64,000 bases of DNA, taken from contig NZ_BLXX01000003.1 in assembly GCF_014193515.1 (NCBI RefSeq), positions 310,001-374,000 on the forward strand, in the 5' to 3' direction. The stretch comes from Geomonas silvestris (lineage in GTDB: Bacteria > Desulfobacterota > Desulfuromonadia > Geobacterales > Geobacteraceae). This document shows positions 4,667-24,343 of this stretch, in pieces. The translations under genes and the position numbers were made by a program. Within the stretch, counting starts at the first letter, position 1; each line of letters begins with the position of its first letter. The notes under the pieces were generated by a model. That model ran no database searches and was not told the DNA's origin. It saw only the letters and a list, made by a program, of their open reading frames with translations.

Positions 4667-4717
4667 TGGCGGAGAGATAGGGATTCGAACCCTAGGTACC
4701 TTTCGGTACACCTGATT
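4667..4717. repeat. attL: 51-bp direct repeat of the tRNA-Ser 3' part
   Basis: The 51 bases are identical to 24293-24343, the 3' part of tRNA-Ser(CGA) from just after the anticodon to the CCA end. Identity stops at 4718 (A) versus 24344 (T). This is the expected product of tyrosine-recombinase integration into a tRNA gene. Confidence 0.93.
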
Positions 4718-4869: not shown

Positions 4870-5874
4870 TTATAGTTCCAAGACCTTTGCAGCATGTACC
4901 AATTTATCAGGGTTCAAGTGAGCATACCGTTCCGTTACCTGGATAGTGCTATGCCCCAACCACTCCTTGACCGTGTAGAGGTCGATACCCTTGTCAATTA
5001 ATCTGGTAGCGGTGGTATGCCTCAGAGCATGCAACACGAACTCCTTATCACCAGTGAGGCCCATCCTCTTCCTTACCCATGTCCATGCGTTCTCGGCTTG
5101 ATCCCTGCCAATCATGAAAGGCTTACCTGCTCCCTCGGTCTTCCTGGTATCCAATATGGTCCCTACCCTACAGGTCATGGGTATGCTCCTTGGCTTGTCT
5201 CCTTTGTTGATCCAAATAGAGATTAGATTGGTTTCAAAGTTAATATCGTCATAGCGTAGGTCCAACACCTCTGACAACCGACACCCTGTATCCACTAGAA
5301 CCTCCACTAAATCAGCCACCTCGGGGAAATGGCACCTCCTGCTATTATGTACCGTGTCCCGTAACAGGCTAATCACCGTACCCACTTCTTCCCTGGTCAA
5401 GACACGAATCCTGCCCTCGGTCTCCCTTTTCAGTTGGATATGCTCCCATGGTTGCCGGTGGTGACGTAGTAAAGTCTTCATGGTGGCTAGATACCTGTTC
5501 ACTGTGGCCCCTTTGATACCGGAACCCTCCAACAACCTGATTAAGAGCTTGATTACGTCATCGTCTACCTTGCTAATTGCAATGTCACCGATCAGTTCCA
5601 TCACCCTCTCTGCTATGCGCTGAGACTTGAGACCGTCCTTGTTATCCTTCCACCGTTCGTCATAGGTCTTTTGGATTGCAATACTCAGTGGCATCCTTGC
5701 GGCCTTCTCCCTGGGAGATAATGCACCGTCTACCATCATCCTCTTCTTCTCAACTGCTTCAACGAGCTTGGCTTCCTTCTTGGTGAATTTTCCGGTACTC
5801 CTGGTTACACGTACTCCGTCAACAGTGAAGTTCATGTAAAACACGGCCTTATCTCCTCTCCTATATACAGACAT
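4870..5874 (-). CDS. Tyrosine site-specific recombinase (integrase), left end
   Basis: The enzyme catalyses integration and excision by a Tyr-DNA intermediate. The start at 5874 follows AAGGAGGT; a longer frame to 5901 would overlap a terminator. In the 334-residue product, residues 1-60 are an Arm-type DNA-binding region (VYRRGDKAVFYMNFTVDG), followed by a core-binding domain and a catalytic domain with R199 (GCRLSEVL), K224, H282-x-x-R285 (HALRHTTATRL), H308 (LGHS) and nucleophile Y317 (ERYAH), so all catalytic residues are present. The gene lies 152 bases inside attL and reads toward it. It is unrelated in sequence to the integrase at the right end apart from the catalytic motifs. Confidence 0.93.
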   Translation of the reverse strand: MSVYRRGDKAVFYMNFTVDGVRVTRSTGKFTKKEAKLVEAVEKKRMMVDGALSPREKAARMPLSIAIQKTYDERWKDNKDGLKSQRIAERVMELIGDIAISKVDDDVIKLLIRLLEGSGIKGATVNRYLATMKTLLRHHRQPWEHIQLKRETEGRIRVLTREEVGTVISLLRDTVHNSRRCHFPEVADLVEVLVDTGCRLSEVLDLRYDDINFETNLISIWINKGDKPRSIPMTCRVGTILDTRKTEGAGKPFMIGRDQAENAWTWVRKRMGLTGDKEFVLHALRHTTATRLIDKGIDLYTVKEWLGHSTIQVTERYAHLNPDKLVHAAKVLEL

Positions 5875-5901
5875 GGTGATACCTCCTTGGATTCCAGGCA
5901 C

Positions 5902-7613: not shown

Positions 7614-8507
7614 TTATGCAGCGGTGTCATCGGTGCTGTCGTCTTCACCTCCTTGTCTGCAAAGTATGTAGTCACTGGCTTTTTGCCCTTGAGATGCAGC
7701 CATTACGAGCAACTTCTGATTACCTTTTATTGCTTTCAGCCACCCCCTGATGTAGCTTGCACTATTTTCAAGTGTCATTTGCTCGATACCAGCATGACCA
7801 CACAGGAAAGCTGAACAAAATTCCGAGCACAATTCCTCTTGAGAATAATTATGTGACCCGAAGTATGAGGGTTCCAGTATCCCCTTCCTCCCTATCCGTC
7901 TAGCGTGACCTGTTGAATGTCCTAACTCATGGAACAAAGTGCTGTAATATTCCTCCGGTGATTCAAATGCTTCAGCTTTAGGAATTTTCACATAGTCCAA
8001 GAAAGGATGGTATGCTGGCTGGTTACCTCCGTAGTGGATATCTGGTCTAAGTGGCATACCTGCAATGATCTGGTCGGCTCTCTCGATGGGGGTAAAGGTG
8101 TTGATGGTCTCTATGGCCGGTGGCGGCTCTATACCCTCCGTTTGGAGTAGATTAAAAACTGAATAGTAGCGCAACACTGGTATCTTACCGTTAATGGCTA
8201 CCTCTCCATCAATAGGTTCAGCATCCTTCTTATCGAGCCATTTCCAGAAGATCACCGGAGTAGACTTCTCACCCTTCCTGATACGACCACCTTTGTCGTG
8301 GCACTGCTTAAATGTCACCCAATACGGGGAGGAATAAGGCATACAGGCCAACATGAACACGTTGATACCCCTATATTCCTTTTTTGAAACATAGTTGGCT
8401 GGTGCGTTACCACCTCCTACGCTCCAGGTTTTCCGCCATGGCACCACATTTGACTCCAATAGCTCCATGATCCTACTGTTGATTACATCGTAGACGTTAA
8501 CTGCCAT
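7614..8507 (-). CDS. ardC: ArdC-like antirestriction protein / zincin metallopeptidase
   Basis: ArdC-family proteins bind single-stranded DNA through an N-terminal domain and carry a C-terminal zinc-peptidase-like domain; they protect incoming mobile DNA from restriction. The 297-residue product begins with the typical VYDVINSRIMELLES and PWRKTW, and has HELGHSTGH (from residue 193) with a downstream glutamate in YSQEELCSE. The start follows AAAGGAGG. It leads the reverse-strand group with the zinc-ribbon and radC genes, which looks like an establishment module. No transfer genes were found beside it. Confidence 0.88.
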   Translation of the reverse strand: MAVNVYDVINSRIMELLESNVVPWRKTWSVGGGNAPANYVSKKEYRGINVFMLACMPYSSPYWVTFKQCHDKGGRIRKGEKSTPVIFWKWLDKKDAEPIDGEVAINGKIPVLRYYSVFNLLQTEGIEPPPAIETINTFTPIERADQIIAGMPLRPDIHYGGNQPAYHPFLDYVKIPKAEAFESPEEYYSTLFHELGHSTGHARRIGRKGILEPSYFGSHNYSQEELCSEFCSAFLCGHAGIEQMTLENSASYIRGWLKAIKGNQKLLVMAASQGQKASDYILCRQGGEDDSTDDTAA

Positions 8508-10894: not shown

Positions 10895-12583
10895 TCATAT
10901 ACAGTTTTCATATATAAGTTTGCATTTACTCGCATTCTTAAATAGCGTACCTAGTAGATTGCCCTTATACATGTTCTCTGTTACTTCGACAGTCTTATTT
11001 ATTGCGTCAATCGTTGTTGAATTAATAAGACTTTTGTTGATAGCATAACTTGAAACCTGAGCAATCTTGGATATATTCAACTTCTTCAACACTACCAACG
11101 CAATGATTCTATTGCCATGCACCATTACCCCGTATCTTTTCCCACTTTTCTTTTCAAGTTTTAAAATCTCTTCGTTTAAGCATTTATCAACCTCTCTTAT
11201 AATGTTAATGCAATTGTATAGATAAATCCCATTGGTCTGTGGATTGAATATAGATTTATATGGTGCTTTTGTCAGATCTTCGAAGAACTTACCAATTTCT
11301 CTCTTTGCCTGCACAGCCAATGCCGACTGCTCGCTTGCGCATGATAGTGCGACAGTTGCTTCCTGAAGATCAAAGGATTTGTCTGAGGGCTTAAAACTTT
11401 CAGATCTTACGATATTATACTCTATACCTTCTATTGCAAGTTCGGTTCTGAGACGTATCTGTTCTTCGTCCTGAGATACAAAGTCCCTATTTTCAATCCT
11501 ATTTTGCCTATTGTTAGATTTTGTTACCTTGGCACCAAAATGTTCATCCGAATTTTCCAAAGAAACAATCCTTAGATGAACTCTAACTTTATCTAGATTA
11601 GCACCGCCTTGCTCGAAATAACGTCCAATGGTACTCACTGTTTGAGCACCATTAACGACATAGACACCATCAGCTTTAAAAGATCCAATATCCCTGGAGC
11701 TTCCCCCAACCATTGACTTTCTAATGCTGTTTGCAACCATCGTTATTCCATTGTTAAAATACCAGAAGCTTTCAGGTGTCGATTCAATAGTATGTTTTAT
11801 TTCGTCATTAACGTTTGTCGAGCCAAGGACATTGCGTATATTTTTCGCAAACAAACGCTTACCATGGTCACACCACCACTTTGCGACCTCTTCACCAGCT
11901 ACCATACCAAAGTACGCATTATGTGGCTCTGACAGCTTTCCCCACTGAGTTAATCCTACTTCTATATTTATATGTTCGCCTTCTAACCCCGAAGCCAGAG
12001 ATACGTGTATAGCGCCTTGATTCATTTGTGTGAAATTCACTAAATCGTCTGACTCTGCATCACCAGCATCGTTCATCTCTTTAAGCAAATCTTCTATATT
12101 CCTCATTGAATGCATACTAAAATTTTGGTTTCCTGTATGTATAACCAATAGTTCATAAGTCGTATCATATTCTGTTAAAGCTTTTTCTATAATTGCTCTT
12201 TTATCTTGAATTTTAAGGTTAAATCGTTCAAAGTCTAGATTAAAAAGGTCCCTAACTCCATTACAAAACTTAACTACATCTGCACTACTAGGTTCTCCGG
12301 TCCCTGATTTATTCCATTTTGATTGAGATATAAGCATTTTCTTATTTGACGGAGAATAGTATATAGCATCAATCCCGTTATCATCGCCACCATCTACAAC
12401 TGAATTTGCTGCATCTACCTCATTAGTTGCAGCCATGTGATATATCGAATAAGCAGCAAGACATCTTGTTAATATTTTCGATTCGATTTCTTTGTCGTTT
12501 GAGGATAAATCTGTAATGTCTATTTTGTCAGCAAATAGCTCTTTAATTTTTCTAGATATTTGATTTACATGAAGTACGCTCAT
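10895..12583 (-). CDS. AIPR-family (abortive infection phage resistance) protein with PD-(D/E)xK-like N-terminus
   Basis: The 562-residue product carries the AIPR core text FWYFNNGITM, VVNGAQTVST and SNNRQNRIENRDF. The N-terminal part has GIDAIYY (D72) and ISQSK (Q87, K89), which fit a restriction-endonuclease-like D...QxK active site. AIPR proteins are linked to abortive infection, with nucleic acid cleavage the presumed action; the precise mechanism is not established to my knowledge. The start at 12583 follows AGGGG. No methyltransferase or partner enzyme lies next to it, only a convergent XRE gene and exported proteins. Locally AT-rich. Confidence 0.85.
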   Translation of the reverse strand: MSVLHVNQISRKIKELFADKIDITDLSSNDKEIESKILTRCLAAYSIYHMAATNEVDAANSVVDGGDDNGIDAIYYSPSNKKMLISQSKWNKSGTGEPSSADVVKFCNGVRDLFNLDFERFNLKIQDKRAIIEKALTEYDTTYELLVIHTGNQNFSMHSMRNIEDLLKEMNDAGDAESDDLVNFTQMNQGAIHVSLASGLEGEHINIEVGLTQWGKLSEPHNAYFGMVAGEEVAKWWCDHGKRLFAKNIRNVLGSTNVNDEIKHTIESTPESFWYFNNGITMVANSIRKSMVGGSSRDIGSFKADGVYVVNGAQTVSTIGRYFEQGGANLDKVRVHLRIVSLENSDEHFGAKVTKSNNRQNRIENRDFVSQDEEQIRLRTELAIEGIEYNIVRSESFKPSDKSFDLQEATVALSCASEQSALAVQAKREIGKFFEDLTKAPYKSIFNPQTNGIYLYNCINIIREVDKCLNEEILKLEKKSGKRYGVMVHGNRIIALVVLKKLNISKIAQVSSYAINKSLINSTTIDAINKTVEVTENMYKGNLLGTLFKNASKCKLIYENCI

Positions 12584-15018: not shown

Positions 15019-15798
15019 ATGCCAACAGAATCCAGCACTCCCAAAAAATTCAAAAGAGGCGTGATTTACGAAGTTAACTTAGACCAGTTGTACAGGGATG
15101 TTGACCAACCACGCAAACACTTTGACGAAGCAGAACTTGAATCTTTAAAGCAATCCATTGCTGATAAAGGATTGTTGTACCCTATTATCTTCCGAGTTGA
15201 CAATAACGACTGCAACATAATTGTTTCTGGAGAAAGACGGTTCAAAGCATTTCAGGCGCTTGGTAAAGAGAAGATTCCAGCAATGTTGGTTAGCAGTGAT
15301 AAGTTCGATGAAGTAGCTCTTATAGATAATATTTTAAGGAGTGAGCTTCATCCGGTCGATGAAGCTGAGGCTCTTGAAAATCTAAGGACCAAACACAACT
15401 ACACCCATGACGAGTTAGGTAATCTGATAGGGAAGGCCGCTAATACTGTTACTGAGATAGTTACGCTAGCAAGATTGTCTCAAGAGATACGTGATGATGC
15501 TCGTACAAGGAAGAACCTATCAAGGAATGCACTACTGAAAGTTGCACGTAAGCCGACTGATAAGGGTAGGAAGAAAGCATATGAGATATTACTGGCATCC
15601 CTATCTAAAGTGGATACTAAGAGACCATATGTAAAGAGCCCTTCCTATAAGAAGACGGTTGATATCTCAGACAAGGCTATCAAAGCTATCCAGACTATAG
15701 ACCTAGGGTCTCTTGGGGATAACAAGTCTGAAGTAGAGACTAAGCTTATGGAACTTTTAGAGGCAATACGCAATAAGCTTGATAGTACAGGAAGTTAA
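15019..15798 (+). CDS. Orphan ParB/Spo0J-family protein
   Basis: ParB proteins bind centromere-like sites and hydrolyse CTP. The 259-residue product has the N-terminal ParB/sulfiredoxin domain with VDQPRKHF and the nucleotide motif GERRF (residues 71-75), then a helix-turn-helix (YTHDELGNLIGKAANTVTEI). Start supported by AGGAGGG and a promoter at 14954. No ParA gene lies nearby, so it may act as a regulator or replication accessory rather than in classical partition. It is transcribed against most genes of the element. Confidence 0.88.
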   Translation: MPTESSTPKKFKRGVIYEVNLDQLYRDVDQPRKHFDEAELESLKQSIADKGLLYPIIFRVDNNDCNIIVSGERRFKAFQALGKEKIPAMLVSSDKFDEVALIDNILRSELHPVDEAEALENLRTKHNYTHDELGNLIGKAANTVTEIVTLARLSQEIRDDARTRKNLSRNALLKVARKPTDKGRKKAYEILLASLSKVDTKRPYVKSPSYKKTVDISDKAIKAIQTIDLGSLGDNKSEVETKLMELLEAIRNKLDSTGS

Positions 15799-17071: not shown

Positions 17072-17286
17072 TACCACCCAGCCTCAGTAGGGTATGGTTT
17101 TTAAATTTTCAGCTAATATTCGAGGTGCAGGGGTCTCTTTTTCGTCACGCGGATCTCCTATAGTTACCCAGGGCACTCCGAGGCTTTGCGTGAAAATGCT
17201 ATGAGACTTTCTAATATCAATGTAGGACAGATGGCACCCCTCAAGCTTAAAGGTATGGCGCCAAAAGTGCAATAATATCAATGGAG

Positions 17287-17494
17287 TGTCACACCTGCCA
17301 CACCTGTCACACCTTTTTGGTGAATTGCTTTTATATTATTGCATATTACATATAGGGGAGGATATATTGTCTGTCTTAAGTATTTTATTTTTATTCTATT
17401 AAGGGTATGACAGGTAGGACAGGTATGCCGAAGCCGGTATTCATGCGGGTTTACAGCGGCACACCTTTGTTTTTTAGGTATGACAGGTATGGCA
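17287..17494. other. Candidate replication origin: tandem 9-bp repeats around an AT-rich core
   Basis: Three perfectly spaced copies of TG(T/C)CACACC (17287-17313) face three copies of GGTATGACA or a near match (17404-17430), and two more lie at 17477-17494, all in exact 9-base register. The second and third sets are the reverse complement type of the first. Between them lies an AT-rich stretch (17314-17403). Inverted repeat arrays around an AT-rich core beside a primase-helicase gene suggest an iteron-like origin. 9 bp is short for classical iterons. Confidence 0.6.
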
Positions 17495-17569: not shown

Positions 17570-19594
17570 TTATTCTTCTGTAGGCCAATCTATTGGTGAA
17601 TTAATGAACTTATCAAAGTCACTTCTACACTCAGCCAATGACTGAAAAGTATAACAGTTCTTCCTAACACCTTTACTTATAGTGACCTTACCTTTCTTGA
17701 ATCCGGAAGCCACCATCTTCCCTAGTTGCATACCCAACTCGGTATCTGATGCCTTATGTTTAACTCCGATGTCCTGAAGAAATTTAACGTACATATCATA
17801 TAACCATTGAGATTCAACGATTCCGTCTTGCCATCCTGACTCGCTGTTTGGTAGCAAATTCCCTGTTTCTAGTACATGATACCAGAACTTCTGTGCTGGC
17901 GTTAAGCTCATGAGTTTGGTTTCTAGTAGCGCACTGGTCTTTGGGAACTTTCTTAAGTCAAGACTACCAAGATCATAGTTCATCAAGTAATGTAGCAGCG
18001 CCTCACGTCCACCATCTTTCATTTCGTCTTCTATTGCACCAAAGTAGACATGATCCTGTTGGTGCTTATCGCTTACATCAACGACAAAAAACCGTCTTTC
18101 ATTCGGACCAGCAGGGACGCACCAATCATTGTTAGTTGCAAACATCATATGAAGGTGGTTCTTCATCTTAAAGGCTTTGTCACCCTTACCTTCTATAGTC
18201 AAGAATGGTTCAGTTATCAGTCCCTTCAATACTCCTTCCGCAGCTTTGTCTCCTGCCCAGAATGCTTCATCTGCTAATAGTACGACTACATCTTTCATAT
18301 GAGCATTAAACTTACCTGTCAACTGGGAACTCTGGTTCATAGGTAGATAGTGCCTTCCGAACAACGAACCGAACCCATTAGCAAAGACACCTTTACCAAC
18401 ACCCATCGCACCACGCATGACGATAGCAGTCCCTACAAGTTCATCTGGGTGCTGAACCGTATGGGCCATCCAGCCTATGATGTAATCGTAAATTTCCTTG
18501 TTTCCATTGGCGATATTCTCCTCAACATGCTTGAGGTATAGGCTGCAATCACCTGCAACTGGCTCAACTGCGAACCCACGCCATAGGTTATAGTATCCCT
18601 TTGGTGTCCCTCCGGGGTTAAAGATCAGACCCTCATACTGGCGACGATTCGGGTGACTAAACCATGTATCACCGAGCTTTCTTTGTTTCCCAGCGACCAA
18701 AGTATATCTGTTGCTGTAAAACTCCTTGAAGTCTTTCGGTGCCGACAGTTCAATATCTGGCCAGTTGAATACCGGGCATGTCGCTTCTTTCAAGACACGA
18801 CATTTGCCACCAACCATTACCACTGCATGGTTCCTGTTAAGTTCCTCGATCTCGGGCTGAACATCTGAGACCTCGTACCTATACGCACTGTCAAGTGTAC
18901 GCTGGACCTCTTTGACCTCTAGTGGAGGGTCACACCTTCTATTCTCTGCAACCACTGCTTCAACGGCATCCTCGTAAGCCATACCTTGTTTGTTGCACCC
19001 AATAGCCACATTGAATATGTGCTGGTTCCGACCACCTTCCTTCATCCCCTCAGCACTGGAACTAACCGCCTTCTTAGCAACAGCTAGGTCCACCAACCAC
19101 TCAGGTGCATCTGCTAACGTCTCGCACATATTTAAAGCCTGATAACGGCCCCCATCAATGACGGAAGGAGGAGCAACAATGTAACCACCTTCGCATCTCA
19201 CATCGAGTCCAGGGCCTAACTTGCCTGCACTGCAAGGCACCTCACGATTTGGGCGCTTAAACAGCAGGTGATATCCACCCGAAGGAGTCGAGTGCTGTCT
19301 GGTTCCTGGCAATTCACCATGCTGCAATTCTAATATTTTGAGGGTATCACTACCTAAAACACCATTCTTGTTGTCTACGTCCACTACAAGCCAGCCAGTG
19401 ACTGCGCCAGTGGGTACACCTATATTTGCATCTGGATGCTGACTCCATAACTGGTTAATAACAATAGGGTCAGTGGTGGCATCTTTAAAACCATTTTTCG
19501 TCAGTGGTGCCTTACCATTTTGCCATAATGGGAACACTGCAATTCCCTTTCCTGCATAATCAAGTGCTGCCTGTTTCATATTTATTTTTTCCAT
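17570..19594 (-). CDS. Bifunctional DNA primase-polymerase / superfamily 3-type helicase
   Basis: The protein would prime and unwind DNA to start replication of the element. The 674-residue product has an N-terminal PrimPol domain (residues 8-165) with catalytic DVD in VVDVDNKNG (D72, D74) and SGGYHLLFK. A primase C-terminal helical part follows, then a virulence-associated E/DUF5906-type ATPase with Walker A GAMGVGKG, Walker B VVVLLADEAFW and FATNNDWCVP. AAAGG precedes the ATG. A candidate origin lies just downstream. Such proteins are the replication core of plasmids, satellites and some phages. Confidence 0.9.
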   Translation of the reverse strand: MEKINMKQAALDYAGKGIAVFPLWQNGKAPLTKNGFKDATTDPIVINQLWSQHPDANIGVPTGAVTGWLVVDVDNKNGVLGSDTLKILELQHGELPGTRQHSTPSGGYHLLFKRPNREVPCSAGKLGPGLDVRCEGGYIVAPPSVIDGGRYQALNMCETLADAPEWLVDLAVAKKAVSSSAEGMKEGGRNQHIFNVAIGCNKQGMAYEDAVEAVVAENRRCDPPLEVKEVQRTLDSAYRYEVSDVQPEIEELNRNHAVVMVGGKCRVLKEATCPVFNWPDIELSAPKDFKEFYSNRYTLVAGKQRKLGDTWFSHPNRRQYEGLIFNPGGTPKGYYNLWRGFAVEPVAGDCSLYLKHVEENIANGNKEIYDYIIGWMAHTVQHPDELVGTAIVMRGAMGVGKGVFANGFGSLFGRHYLPMNQSSQLTGKFNAHMKDVVVLLADEAFWAGDKAAEGVLKGLITEPFLTIEGKGDKAFKMKNHLHMMFATNNDWCVPAGPNERRFFVVDVSDKHQQDHVYFGAIEDEMKDGGREALLHYLMNYDLGSLDLRKFPKTSALLETKLMSLTPAQKFWYHVLETGNLLPNSESGWQDGIVESQWLYDMYVKFLQDIGVKHKASDTELGMQLGKMVASGFKKGKVTISKGVRKNCYTFQSLAECRSDFDKFINSPIDWPTEE

Positions 19595-19700: not shown

Positions 19701-19934
19701 CTATTGCTTGCTAACTGTCATCTCCTTTCCTGCAAGCTCATCTATATATGCCATAATCACGCTATCCATGTACCGTGCAAGGCGGCCTATCTTTATGTAC
19801 TCCGGTCCTATCTTCTTCCAACGCCAGCACTCTAGTGTCTTAGTTGAGACGCCCAACATCTCAGCAACCTCCTTTTGATCTAACAATCTTGTGTACTGAT
19901 ACTTAGAGTGCGTCTTGTACTTAATTTTTTTCAT
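19701..19934 (-). CDS. AlpA/excisionase-like helix-turn-helix protein
   Basis: The 77-residue protein carries a MerR-like DNA-binding fold: LLDQKEVAEMLGVSTKTLEC then WRWKKIGPEYIKIGRLARY, the usual text of AlpA regulators and excisionases (HTH_17). Such proteins act as recombination directionality factors or activate integrase or replication genes. The start follows GGAGAG. It lies directly upstream of the PrimPol gene in the same direction and could control it. Confidence 0.88.
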   Translation of the reverse strand: MKKIKYKTHSKYQYTRLLDQKEVAEMLGVSTKTLECWRWKKIGPEYIKIGRLARYMDSVIMAYIDELAGKEMTVSKQ

Positions 19935-20127
19935 CTCGTTCTCTCCTACGTCATTTGAAATGTGCTGCCCTCTCAGAGAGCAACTGCCGATCAGTGTCGG
20001 TCTTTATATATGTTATTAAGCGCATCTTGTTTTCGGTTGCAGTATTTTTTAGAAAAGGATAGTACTGGGGTCTATTCTTGGGCTATGGGAACTGCTGTTG
20101 GGGGAGTATATCAAGGCGGGAATACAC

Positions 20128-22938: not shown

Positions 22939-24243
22939 TTACATTGGTGATATCTCGATGCCATATTCCAGGTGTATCATAGCCTCCAAGAGAACCTTTG
23001 GCTGATACCTCTTACCATACCGGCTCATTGTCATAGAATCGTTGGCATGTCCCATGATCTCGGAGATAACAACCTCCTGTACGCCTGCTTGCTTCATGGT
23101 GTCGGTTACCGTATGACGCAGGCTATGAAACACCTTGGCCTTGTCAGTGGTCACATGACTCCTGTTAAACTTCTGGAACCACTTACCAAAGGCATTGCTG
23201 TAACCATCTGCCTCTCGCCAATTCAGGTTCATCCATAACCGTGGAACCCCATCAGCACGGAGTCGTTCAACATATTTCAGGAACCCACACTTTAGCAGGG
23301 CAGGGTGGAGCGGTATGACCCTTTTGCTGGATAATGTCTTTACCTTCTTGTCCTGGTCATCGTTGACGCTGAAGCACCACACGTCATCAATCTGCTGCAC
23401 ATCAGCCACATACATCTGACATATCTCGTCCAACCGCAAGCCTGAGAACATGGCCACTACCGGAATCCAGTACCGTTCAGGTTTCTCCTGGTCCCTTGGC
23501 AAGCACCCCAGTATCAATTTTAGCTCTTCAACAGTATAAGCCTTACGCTCCTCGTCACTCCTGCGCTTCTCAGGTATGAGCATACCTTGGGCGTAGTTGA
23601 CGGTAAGGAGGCTACCCTTGACGCAATAACTAAGCAGGGAATTAAGCCTCGATATATATTTGTTCGCAGACTTGATGCTCATAGGAGTTACATCAGGAAG
23701 GTCAAGCACCTCTGAGGCTGTCTTGCCTGGATATATCTTGTACTGGTTGGCTGGGAGTCGCATAAGCTTACTTCGGAAATCAAGCACCACGGCCTTGGTT
23801 ATGCTCTTCACGTCCACGTCACCGAGGATATCCTGTATCAGCCTATGGCAAGCAACGATCTCAATTTTCGTCTTGGGTGTCCACCTTGTCTCGTGCATGA
23901 CAACGTACTCTTGCATCAGGACGGATAGCAAATGACCTTTACTTGGGGCCTTACGTTTCGCTGGGCATAGTTCACCTACCACATTTTGCAGTTGATCACC
24001 GGACAGCACACCAGCACGGATCAGGGCAAACACCTGCTGCACTCTAAGCTCGATACCAACAGCAAGGAGTCTCGCACAATTGGTGTCAGTAGCCTTCAGT
24101 GACTTTTTTATTTCGCATGTAGGGAATTTTGGTCTTAGGTCTACGGGTATGGCAATCCTGTAGTAGTAGCGACCATTACGGGTTGTAAGATGGGATGGAT
24201 AAAACAAAACCTCTACCTCCAGTTGGTCCAAATCTTGGACCAT
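22939..24243 (-). CDS. Tyrosine site-specific recombinase (integrase), right end
   Basis: The 434-residue protein has an N-terminal domain typical of phage-type integrases (RNGRYYYRIAIPVDLR), a core-binding domain and a catalytic domain with R270 (SGLRLDE), H373-x-x-R376 (HSLRH), H399 (MGHAND) and Y409 (MSRYGK). All are present. The ATG at 24243 lacks a clear ribosome binding site. A TTG at 24207 has GGAGGT seven bases upstream and may be the true start. Being next to the intact tRNA, it is a strong candidate for the enzyme that made the present insertion. It is not closely related to the left integrase. Confidence 0.92.
   Translation of the reverse strand: MVQDLDQLEVEVLFYPSHLTTRNGRYYYRIAIPVDLRPKFPTCEIKKSLKATDTNCARLLAVGIELRVQQVFALIRAGVLSGDQLQNVVGELCPAKRKAPSKGHLLSVLMQEYVVMHETRWTPKTKIEIVACHRLIQDILGDVDVKSITKAVVLDFRSKLMRLPANQYKIYPGKTASEVLDLPDVTPMSIKSANKYISRLNSLLSYCVKGSLLTVNYAQGMLIPEKRRSDEERKAYTVEELKLILGCLPRDQEKPERYWIPVVAMFSGLRLDEICQMYVADVQQIDDVWCFSVNDDQDKKVKTLSSKRVIPLHPALLKCGFLKYVERLRADGVPRLWMNLNWREADGYSNAFGKWFQKFNRSHVTTDKAKVFHSLRHTVTDTMKQAGVQEVVISEIMGHANDSMTMSRYGKRYQPKVLLEAMIHLEYGIEISPM
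24224..24242. promoter_or_regulatory. Palindrome at the right integrase start, candidate operator
   Basis: TGGTCCAA-ATC-TTGGACCA, 8-bp arms with a three-base spacer, overlaps the annotated ATG and lies upstream of the alternative TTG start. Confidence 0.45.
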
Positions 24244-24292: not shown

Positions 24293-24343
24293 TGGCGGAG
24301 AGATAGGGATTCGAACCCTAGGTACCTTTCGGTACACCTGATT
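24293..24343. repeat. attR: 51-bp direct repeat inside tRNA-Ser
   Basis: Identical to 4667-4717. Covers the tRNA from just 3' of the anticodon to the CCA end. Confidence 0.93.

What the first reader, a model, noticed from the sequence alone, without database searches (positions are those of the whole stretch)
17287..17494. Origin-like array of 9-bp repeats around an AT-rich core
At least eight copies of a 9-bp unit (GGTGTGACA type) lie in exact register, three in one orientation left of an AT-rich stretch and five in the other right of it. This lies just downstream of the PrimPol-helicase gene. The short 9-bp period is unlike typical plasmid iterons.
Basis: partly seen in the sequence, partly recalled or inferred. 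Interest (0 to 1): 0.65.

Follow-up and report, generated by a model that had tools for sequence, protein, structure and literature searches.

The report
Mirrored 9-bp iteron replication origin
Next to the replication gene of a mobile DNA island in a bacterium lies a mirror-image set of short 9-letter repeats around an easily melted stretch, very probably the site where the island starts copying itself, and the same layout with different letters recurs in many phages, plasmids and islands.

Summary
The array is real. Two inward-facing triplets of 9-bp units (17287-17313, 17404-17430) flank a 77% AT core, with further units outside (about 17221-17494). Nothing comparable occurs elsewhere in the window; 0 of 2000 local shuffles reach its score. 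It lies about 75 bp behind a PrimPol-DUF5906 helicase gene, in a 19.6-kb element with perfect 51-bp ends at tRNA-Ser.

Five of five full-length relatives at 47% identity or more have it; two short homologues do not. A mirrored 9-bp array follows the helicase gene in 25 of 75 loci and in 18 of 54 further clusters (19 with one low-complexity case); other periods gave 0-2. Units share a degenerate TGTCC core but differ between elements, and unit similarity tracks the helicase's C-terminal winged-helix domain, not its core.

Four plasmids under 10 kb have it and no other Rep family among the proteins scanned. NrS-1's priming site sits at an iteron junction; pRN1's "stem-loop" origin has tandem TGTCC 9-mers as arms, though rescue data there favour pairing.

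Verdict: an origin of the P4/PICI type, a distinct variant. Replication was not tested.

The parts
17287..17313 (+). Distal inner triplet of 9-bp units TGTCACACC TGCCACACC TGTCACACC
   Evidence: tandem, period 9
17314..17403 (.). AT-rich core, putative melting region
   Evidence: 0.767 AT against 0.569 for the element and 0.356 for the chromosome at 25000-64000
17404..17430 (-). Proximal inner triplet (plus strand GGTATGACA GGTAGGACA GGTATGCCG), inverted relative to the distal triplet
   Evidence: pair score 51; shuffle maximum 41
17434..17457 (-). Conserved spacer box GCTGTAAACCCGCATGAATACCGG (minus strand)
   Evidence: p = 0.007 against the box model, optimistic because this spacer is one of the 90 used to build the model; same or similar box in relatives L006, L007, L008
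17457..17465 (+). Single outer unit CGGCACACC, opposite orientation to the proximal triplet
17477..17494 (-). Outer pair of units GGTATGACA GGTATGGCA (plus strand)
17252..17260 (-). Distal single outer unit GGTATGGCG (plus strand), opposite orientation to the distal triplet
   Evidence: mirrors 17457-17465
17258..17281 (+). Possible second spacer box GCGCCAAAAGTGCAATAATATCAA
   Evidence: p = 0.063, inconclusive
17221..17240 (.). Two weak outermost units (TGTAGGACA 17221-17229; TGGCACCCC 17232-17240) in opposite orientations
   Evidence: by eye; the same arrangement in relative L008
17570..19594 (-). PrimPol - PriCT_1 - DUF5906 helicase with C-terminal winged helix, the proposed initiator
19701..19934 (-). 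AlpA/excisionase-like HTH protein
   Evidence: HTH_17; phrog_66
22939..24243 (-). Tyrosine integrase beside tRNA-Ser
4667..4717 (.). Left attachment repeat, 51 bp
   Evidence: 100% identical to 24293-24343
24293..24343 (.). Right attachment repeat in the 3' part of tRNA-Ser

Best explanation
The array is the replication origin of a 19.6-kb integrative element. Shown: the mirrored array, its recurrence in relatives, its position behind the helicase gene, and the covariation of the unit with the C-terminal domain. Inferred: after excision, the C-terminal winged helix of the PrimPol-DUF5906 protein binds the 9-bp units. The two inward-facing triplets load two SF3 hexamers at the edges of the AT-rich core, which melts. 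The PrimPol domain then primes on the exposed strands, giving divergent forks. The outer inverted units and the spacer box between them and the triplets probably shape the complex, either by bending DNA or by offering a priming site.
For: Window array not by chance. Present in five of five full-length relatives at 47% identity or more. Mirrored 9-bp pair downstream in 25 of 75 loci against 0, 1, 0, 0, 0 of 75 at periods 7, 8, 10, 11, 12, and 5 hits in 681 kb elsewhere. Held in further clusters: 19 of 54 (18 without the low-complexity L116) against 0, 1, 1, 2, 1 at periods 7, 8, 10, 11, 12 (0, 0, 0, 1, 0 without L116), and 1 hit in 385 kb elsewhere. Five of the seven plasmids fetched with a DUF5906 gene have it (L104 exactly at the threshold); four of these are under 10 kb, with no other Rep family among 28 of 33 listed proteins. 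Unit similarity follows the C-terminal domain given the core (partial rho 0.312, p 0.0005), not the core given the C-terminus (-0.118, p 0.95). The model has a C-terminal winged helix and resembles the NrS-1 C-terminal region (Z 26.8) and the SaPI5 primase-helicase (Z 19.8). NrS-1 carries such repeats directly behind its primase, with the published priming sequence at a junction of two of them (PMC8718748). The pRN1 origin, shown by others to be necessary and, with the replication operon, sufficient (PMC4234260), has tandem TGTCC 9-mers as arms.
Against: No replication, binding or excision data for this element. Most homologues fail the strict array test (50 of 75; 35 or 36 of 54). Short homologues L011 and L017, plasmid L106 and phages L108-L111 fail it; plasmid L107 has an 8-bp period instead. 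The exact mirror is not the rule: an inverted outer unit at -36 +-1 on both sides was found in 6 of 45 arrays. GC skew of the small plasmids gave no usable signal. Per-residue covariation did not single out a recognition helix. In pRN1, symmetry-restoring mutations rescued replication, which favours a hairpin there.
Confidence: 0.85

Rival explanations
1. The mirrored arms work as a DNA stem-loop (cruciform), as proposed for pRN1, rather than as protein-binding iterons.
For: Window arms are 27 nt and 78% complementary. In pRN1 a mutation on one side of the stem abolished replication and further mutations restoring symmetry rescued it (PMC4234260, passage).
Against: Arms are tandem 9-bp repeats with an enforced period, which a hairpin does not need. 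Arms are often imperfectly complementary, and further units lie outside in both orientations. Relatedness of the unit to the C-terminal domain is not expected for a hairpin.
Confidence: 0.1
2. Operator array for a regulator of the element (auto-repression of the primase operon or control of the neighbouring gene).
For: Iteron arrays can double as operators (recalled). HTH regulators are encoded nearby.
Against: It lies behind the gene, not at its promoter, and occurs on plasmids with different neighbours. Upstream regions rarely show the period: 1 of 53 at the floor p.
Confidence: 0.06
3. Centromere-like parS site for the ParB-like protein encoded at 15019-15798.
For: A ParB_N/HTH_ParB gene lies 1.4 kb from the array's outer end.
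Against: Four small plasmids with the array show no ParB family among the proteins scanned. The unit tracks the helicase C-terminus.
Confidence: 0.03
4. For the spacer box only: a host IHF site that sharply bends the DNA and brings the inverted outer unit alongside the triplet.
For: IHF consensus (recalled) perfect in 9 of 90 spacers (shuffled mean 0.09, maximum 1) and within one mismatch in 22 of 90 (mean 1.75, maximum 6).
Against: The window's own proximal box does not fit the IHF consensus. Box matches also appear downstream in Alicyclobacillus (p 0.007) and in one of two Lactiplantibacillus flanks (p 0.023) (16 stretches tested, uncorrected); such bacteria lack IHF (recalled). A priming site is the alternative.
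Confidence: 0.4

Closest known systems
PICI / SaPI rep-ori (EcCICFT073, SaPIbov1; PMC6092414, PMC7581432)
   Same: [quoted passage not shown] That iteron sequence differs between such elements is recalled.
   Different: Here the primase is an AEP PrimPol fused to a DUF5906 helicase. A 9-bp period, outer inverted units and a shared spacer box were found here; the PICI figure sequences were not visible to compare.
Phage P4 crr/ori with alpha protein
   Same: Short repeats (type 1, GGTGAACA) in both orientations; crr directly behind the alpha gene; TGTTCACC resembles the TGTCAxACC units; one pair 9 bp apart in each crr repeat.
   Different: P4 spacing is irregular (9, 10, 11, 14, 18); alpha has a Toprim-type primase (as stated in PMC4234260).
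Nitratiruptor phage NrS-1 PrimPol
   Same: Closest solved helicase (6k9c). Eleven exact copies of a 9-mer in both orientations behind the primase gene.
   Different: Mixed 9 and 12 bp spacing within tandem blocks; an annotated ORF overlaps the array; the array is not described in the passages read.
Archaeal plasmid pRN1 origin
   Same: Downstream of a PrimPol-SF3 helicase with C-terminal winged helix; mirrored arms made of TGTCCATAG TGTCCAACT around a 58-nt AT-rich loop.
   Different: Two units per arm and no outer units seen; the authors call it a stem-loop without iteron structure and have symmetry-rescue data.
Theta plasmids with long iterons (RK2, pPS10 type; recalled)
   Same: Direct repeats next to an AT-rich region and an initiator gene.
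   Different: Longer iterons of about 17-22 bp in one orientation; Rep is not a helicase-primase.

Membership tests
P4/PICI-type primase-helicase origin | Short repeats in two opposed sets flanking an AT-rich region | tested here: met
P4/PICI-type primase-helicase origin | Located at or directly behind an SF3/D5-type helicase-primase gene | tested here: met
   about 75 bp behind 17570-19594
P4/PICI-type primase-helicase origin | Helicase C-terminal domain binds the repeats | tested here: inconclusive
   Winged helix predicted and covariation; no binding data
P4/PICI-type primase-helicase origin | Drives autonomous replication | not testable with these tools
   needs a plasmid assay
PICI (whole element) | Integrase, AlpA-like regulator, pri-rep, ori at a chromosomal att site | tested here: met
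PICI (whole element) | Helper-phage induction, packaging and interference genes | not tested
   not searched for; the element is not filed as a PICI
pRN1-type stem-loop origin | Perfect long stem with loop, structure kept without sequence conservation | tested here: inconclusive
   Window arms 78% complementary; pairing and iteron symmetry cannot be separated here
ParB/parS site | Occurs with ParB | tested here: not met
   Array present on four small plasmids with no ParB family among the proteins scanned (28 of 33 listed)
Long-iteron theta plasmid origin | Iterons of about 17-22 bp in one orientation with a RepA/RepB-type initiator (definition recalled) | tested here: not met
   9-bp units in both orientations; the adjacent candidate initiator is a PrimPol-helicase

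The most novel reading that the evidence does not exclude
One origin architecture, mirrored 9-bp iterons with a TGTCC-like core around an AT-rich core, serves PrimPol/D5-type helicase replicons in bacteria, phages and archaeal plasmids. pRN1's published stem-loop origin is such a mirrored iteron pair. Elements escape one another by changing the winged helix and the last four bases of the unit together, while the 9-bp pitch, set by how helicase subunits line up on DNA, stays fixed.
Probability: 0.45. Interest if true: 0.8.

Novelty: new variant of a known kind. Interest (0 to 1): 0.6.

Why it matters
If right, origins of a large, mostly uncharacterised group of phages, plasmids and islands can be found by a simple sequence rule, and their compatibility predicted. 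It gives a natural set of paired DNA sites and winged helices for learning a recognition code, including two paralogues in one genome (Methylobacterium gnaphalii, TGTCCTACC and TGTCCTAAG). It also offers a testable alternative reading of the pRN1 stem-loop origin and places NrS-1's known priming sequence inside an iteron array.

Tried and rejected
GC skew as independent evidence of the origin on four small plasmids: the range exceeded its shuffles only in L102, where the array sits beside the maximum, not the minimum, and gene orientation may explain it; not used. Per-column mutual information to name specificity residues: top columns were spread over core and C-terminus; not used beyond noting residue 636 in the wing. 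Sliding-window partial correlations are raised from about 600 to 670 but also at 440 and 540-560. An IHF reading of the spacer box is kept as a rival only. Flanks of archaeal arrays do not match the box (8 pRN-family flanks, p 0.08 to 0.89). By blastn the array DNA has one weak match in the plasmid collection, 31 bp at 93.5%.

As a family control I examined 17 of the 19 loci with D5_N (PF08706) returned (L209 and L212 left out): lag-9 score of 14 or more in 4 (L195, L199, L207, L211); some others show, by eye, short repeats spaced 8, 10 or 11. So a 9-bp pitch is not exclusive to the DUF5906 group, and its strictness there is an impression, not a tested difference. VapE (PF05272) gave 2 matches below its cut-off in 148 genomes and was not pursued.

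Not scanned for Rep families: 2 of 7 listed proteins of L102 and 3 of 10 of L104; plasmid gene tables are incomplete by the tool's own note.

Limits of the counts: the second test is new data under unchanged thresholds, but its seed alignment A2 was built mostly from array-bearing helicases, and only the best 80 matches of a capped list were kept. Rows dropped: L005, L026, L094, L100 (no complete helicase end, or duplicates), L113 (same contig as L027), 2 of 76 loci with under 350 bp downstream, 5 at 85% or more identity to the first set; L116 after the count as low complexity. The 75 loci are 62 clusters plus L006 and L024 (each 85% or more like a cluster member) plus 11 plasmid and phage records; the positives are 18 of 62, 2 of 2 and 5 of 11 (listed). 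L002 and L009, and L003 and L007, are the same two places.

Literature: searches (listings; passages or sections read in five papers only) showed no paper describing a common 9-bp period or this layout. The library lacks most subscription papers; the SaPI, P4 and first NrS-1 papers were not seen.

Full report
WHAT IS THERE. The window holds an integrated element of 19,626 bp between perfect 51-bp repeats at 4667-4717 and 24293-24343, the latter in the 3' part of a tRNA-Ser gene. It carries an integrase (22939-24243), an AlpA-like HTH protein (19701-19934) and a PrimPol-PriCT_1-DUF5906 helicase (17570-19594, minus strand). The array begins about 75 bp behind the stop of that gene. Two triplets of 9-bp units face inward (17287-17313 and 17404-17430) around a 90-bp core of 0.767 AT. 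Outside lie single inverted units (17252-17260, 17457-17465), an outer pair (17477-17494) and two weak units (17221-17240): about 12 in all by eye, 9 by a matrix scan that counts the outer pair once. The mirrored-triplet score is 51; the best elsewhere in the window is 38 and 0 of 2000 local shuffles reach 51.

RELATIVES. The host is of the same genus as a genome whose contig length equals that of Geomonas edaphica Red53 (an inference). Behind the PrimPol gene, the five distinct full-length relatives at 47% identity or more all have such an array: Geobacter sp. AOG1 (unit GCTAGGACA on one strand), G. edaphica, a second copy in the same genome, a Geobacteraceae MAG and a deltaproteobacterial MAG. 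Two homologues with short frames, L011 (478 aa) and L017 (251 aa), show none; L026, a fragment at a contig end, could not be tested.

THE PERIOD IS GENERAL. In 62 clusters of helicases (85% identity; the window is one), the 700 bp downstream hold a tandem 9-bp block at the floor p value in 25 of 62; lags 7, 8 and 10-15 give 0-4 of 62; the upstream control gives 1 of 53. A stricter test, two mirrored triplets 40-130 bp apart, gave 25 of 75 loci, with 0, 1, 0, 0, 0 of 75 at periods 7, 8, 10, 11, 12 and 5 hits in 681 kb elsewhere in the same loci. Three of those five hits belong to two arrays 2.4-2.5 kb downstream (L039, L044). I then fetched more phage contigs and repeated the unchanged test: 19 of 54 clusters, 18 without a low-complexity case, 0-2 at other periods, 1 in 385 kb elsewhere. 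The finding held on sequences not used to make it, although the seed for that search was mostly array-bearing helicases. It is not universal: 50 of 75 and 35 of 54 (36 without L116) fail the strict test, and some loci use other periods (8 in plasmid L107; 11 in L163).

THE LAYOUT. Relative to the inner triplet, further units recur at certain offsets in 90 flanks: same orientation at -55 (18), -64 (17), -66 (12) and -44 (10); inverted at -36 to -38 (26); 0.05 expected per offset. The cleanest case, Methylobacterium gnaphalii L024, is an exact mirror: 2 units, 1 inverted, 3, core, 3, 1 inverted, 2. Strictly, an inverted unit at -36 +-1 on both sides was found in 6 of 45 arrays (left 8, right 12), so the mirror is a tendency with variation, not a fixed rule; block frames were not normalised, which blurs offsets.

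THE UNIT. Forty-five arrays (the 25, the 18, and the two displaced ones) share a degenerate consensus T-G-T-C-C followed by four variable bases; information 5.2 bits allowing either orientation, and 4.8 without flips against a mean of 2.9 (maximum 3.05, 20 trials, no flips) for scrambled units. Unit similarity follows similarity of the C-terminal domain (residues 566-674): rho 0.298, p 0.001; given the core, 0.312, p 0.0005. With the helicase core, given the C-terminus, it is -0.118, p 0.95. Two paralogues in M. gnaphalii differ in unit (TGTCCTACC, TGTCCTAAG) and in the predicted recognition helix (ETVLGARLRKL, EIVFGKKLNKL). Column-by-column analysis did not isolate the contact residues.

THE PROTEIN. 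The AlphaFold2 model (mean pLDDT 81.5, pTM 0.64) ends in a winged helix: helices 566-577, 595-609 and 617-627, strands 633-640 and 643-649, helix 653-664. Best structural matches are the NrS-1 C-terminal region (6k9c, Z 26.8, rmsd 4.7, 374 aligned) and the SaPI5 primase-helicase (7om0, Z 19.8, rmsd 6.3, 356 aligned), with other D5/SF3 viral helicases below.

PLASMIDS. Of seven plasmids with a DUF5906 gene that I fetched (of 263 records matching), five pass the mirrored 9-bp test downstream (L101-L105; L104 exactly at the threshold), one has an 8-bp version (L107) and one has none (L106). Four are under 10 kb. Pfam found no other replication initiator among 10 of 10, 5 of 7, 6 of 6 and 7 of 10 listed proteins of L101, L102, L103 and L104; L105 has a RepB as well. 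Four phage records fetched (L108-L111) fail the test.

THE BOX. The spacer between the inverted outer unit and the triplet holds a shared motif near AAACCCTTGATATTACTGAC: information 8.31 against 6.19 (maximum 6.45, 10 trials) in shuffled spacers, and 49 of 90 spacers score at p below 0.05 leave-one-out against 4.5 expected. The IHF consensus is over-represented (9 of 90 perfect, shuffled mean 0.09). The window's proximal box scores p 0.007 (it was part of the model's input) and does not fit the IHF consensus; the distal one scores 0.063. Of 16 stretches scanned, uncorrected, those below 0.05 were the window's proximal spacer, Alicyclobacillus, one of two Lactiplantibacillus flanks, P4 crr and P4 ori; the 8 pRN-family flanks and NrS-1 were not. 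I leave open whether it is a bend site or a priming site.

CHARACTERISED RELATIVES. NrS-1: behind its primase gene lie 11 exact copies of AAGTGTAAC in both orientations, 9 or 12 bp apart within the tandem blocks. The published priming sequence TTTGGTTA (PMC8718748, passages read) falls at a junction of two copies. PMC7102993 (passages read) reports two copies in the genome, one per strand; I saw one in the 11 kb fetched. pRN1: a 100-bp stem-loop behind the primase-helicase gene is necessary and, with the replication operon, sufficient for replication (PMC4234260; abstract, passages, section 13 and part of section 18 read). Its arm reads TGTCCATAG TGTCCAACT. Against shuffles, the arms of pRN1, pHEN7 and a Lactiplantibacillus plasmid score as family dimers at p 0.0005, the floor; pDL10 0.05, BIP-1 0.11, pRN2 0.70 (3 of 6). 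No clear arm was found in pSSVx or pHTUR06. The authors state that pRN1 lacks the iteron structure of many plasmids. Against my reading, they report that a one-sided stem change stopped replication and symmetry-restoring changes rescued it. P4: type 1 repeats sit in crr just behind alpha, with pairs 9 bp apart, others 10-18. PICIs: two sets of iterons always flank an AT-rich region in the E. coli elements shown, and rep-ori of one was shown to work in E. coli (PMC6092414; passages and section 11 read). SCCmec Cch2 binds its direct repeats through its C-terminal domain (PMC7581432, passages read).

CONCLUSION. The array works like the P4/PICI class of origin and very probably is one. New here are the 9-bp pitch with changing letters, the mirror layout, the spacer box, and covariation with the winged helix. 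Binding, melting, priming and replication are inferred.

Noticed in passing
window 4870-5901: A second tyrosine-recombinase-like ORF just inside the left attachment repeat (by eye from the translation, not scanned against a library).
   Followed up: no
window 7614-8507 and 10895-12583: ArdC-type anti-restriction protein and an AIPR-family protein as cargo of the element.
   Followed up: no
L006 (own genome, contig C23): A second element of the same kind in the same genome with a very similar unit, so cross-talk or competition between the two initiators is possible.
   Followed up: partly
L201 (own genome, contig C24): A D5_N-type primase with ATGGAACGAT-like repeats downstream at irregular spacing.
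   Followed up: no
L039 and L044, 2.4-2.5 kb behind the helicase gene: Mirrored 9-bp arrays displaced from the usual position.
   Followed up: partly
L086, L093 (10 bp), L163 (11 bp), L088 and L107 (8 bp): Downstream tandem blocks with other periods, useful for asking what sets the pitch.
   Followed up: no
L193 4056-4457: The iteron array of phage NrS-1 is overlapped by annotated gene NRS1_29, which may not be a real gene.
   Followed up: no
L216, about 470 bp behind the stated end of the BIP-1 replication gene: A 22-nt mirrored arm contains a tandem 9-mer GTTTGCCTC; probably the published BIP-1 stem-loop, though its figure was not seen.
   Followed up: partly
L003, L006 both spacers; window 17434-17452: Subfamily box AAACCCGCATGAATAC(A/T/C)GG, in direct rather than mirrored orientation on the two sides in L003 and L006.
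   Followed up: partly
NC_011888 (M. nodulans plasmid) 20011-20041: A 31-bp stretch 93.5% identical to the window's distal triplet, with no gene listed there; possibly another array of this kind.
   Followed up: no
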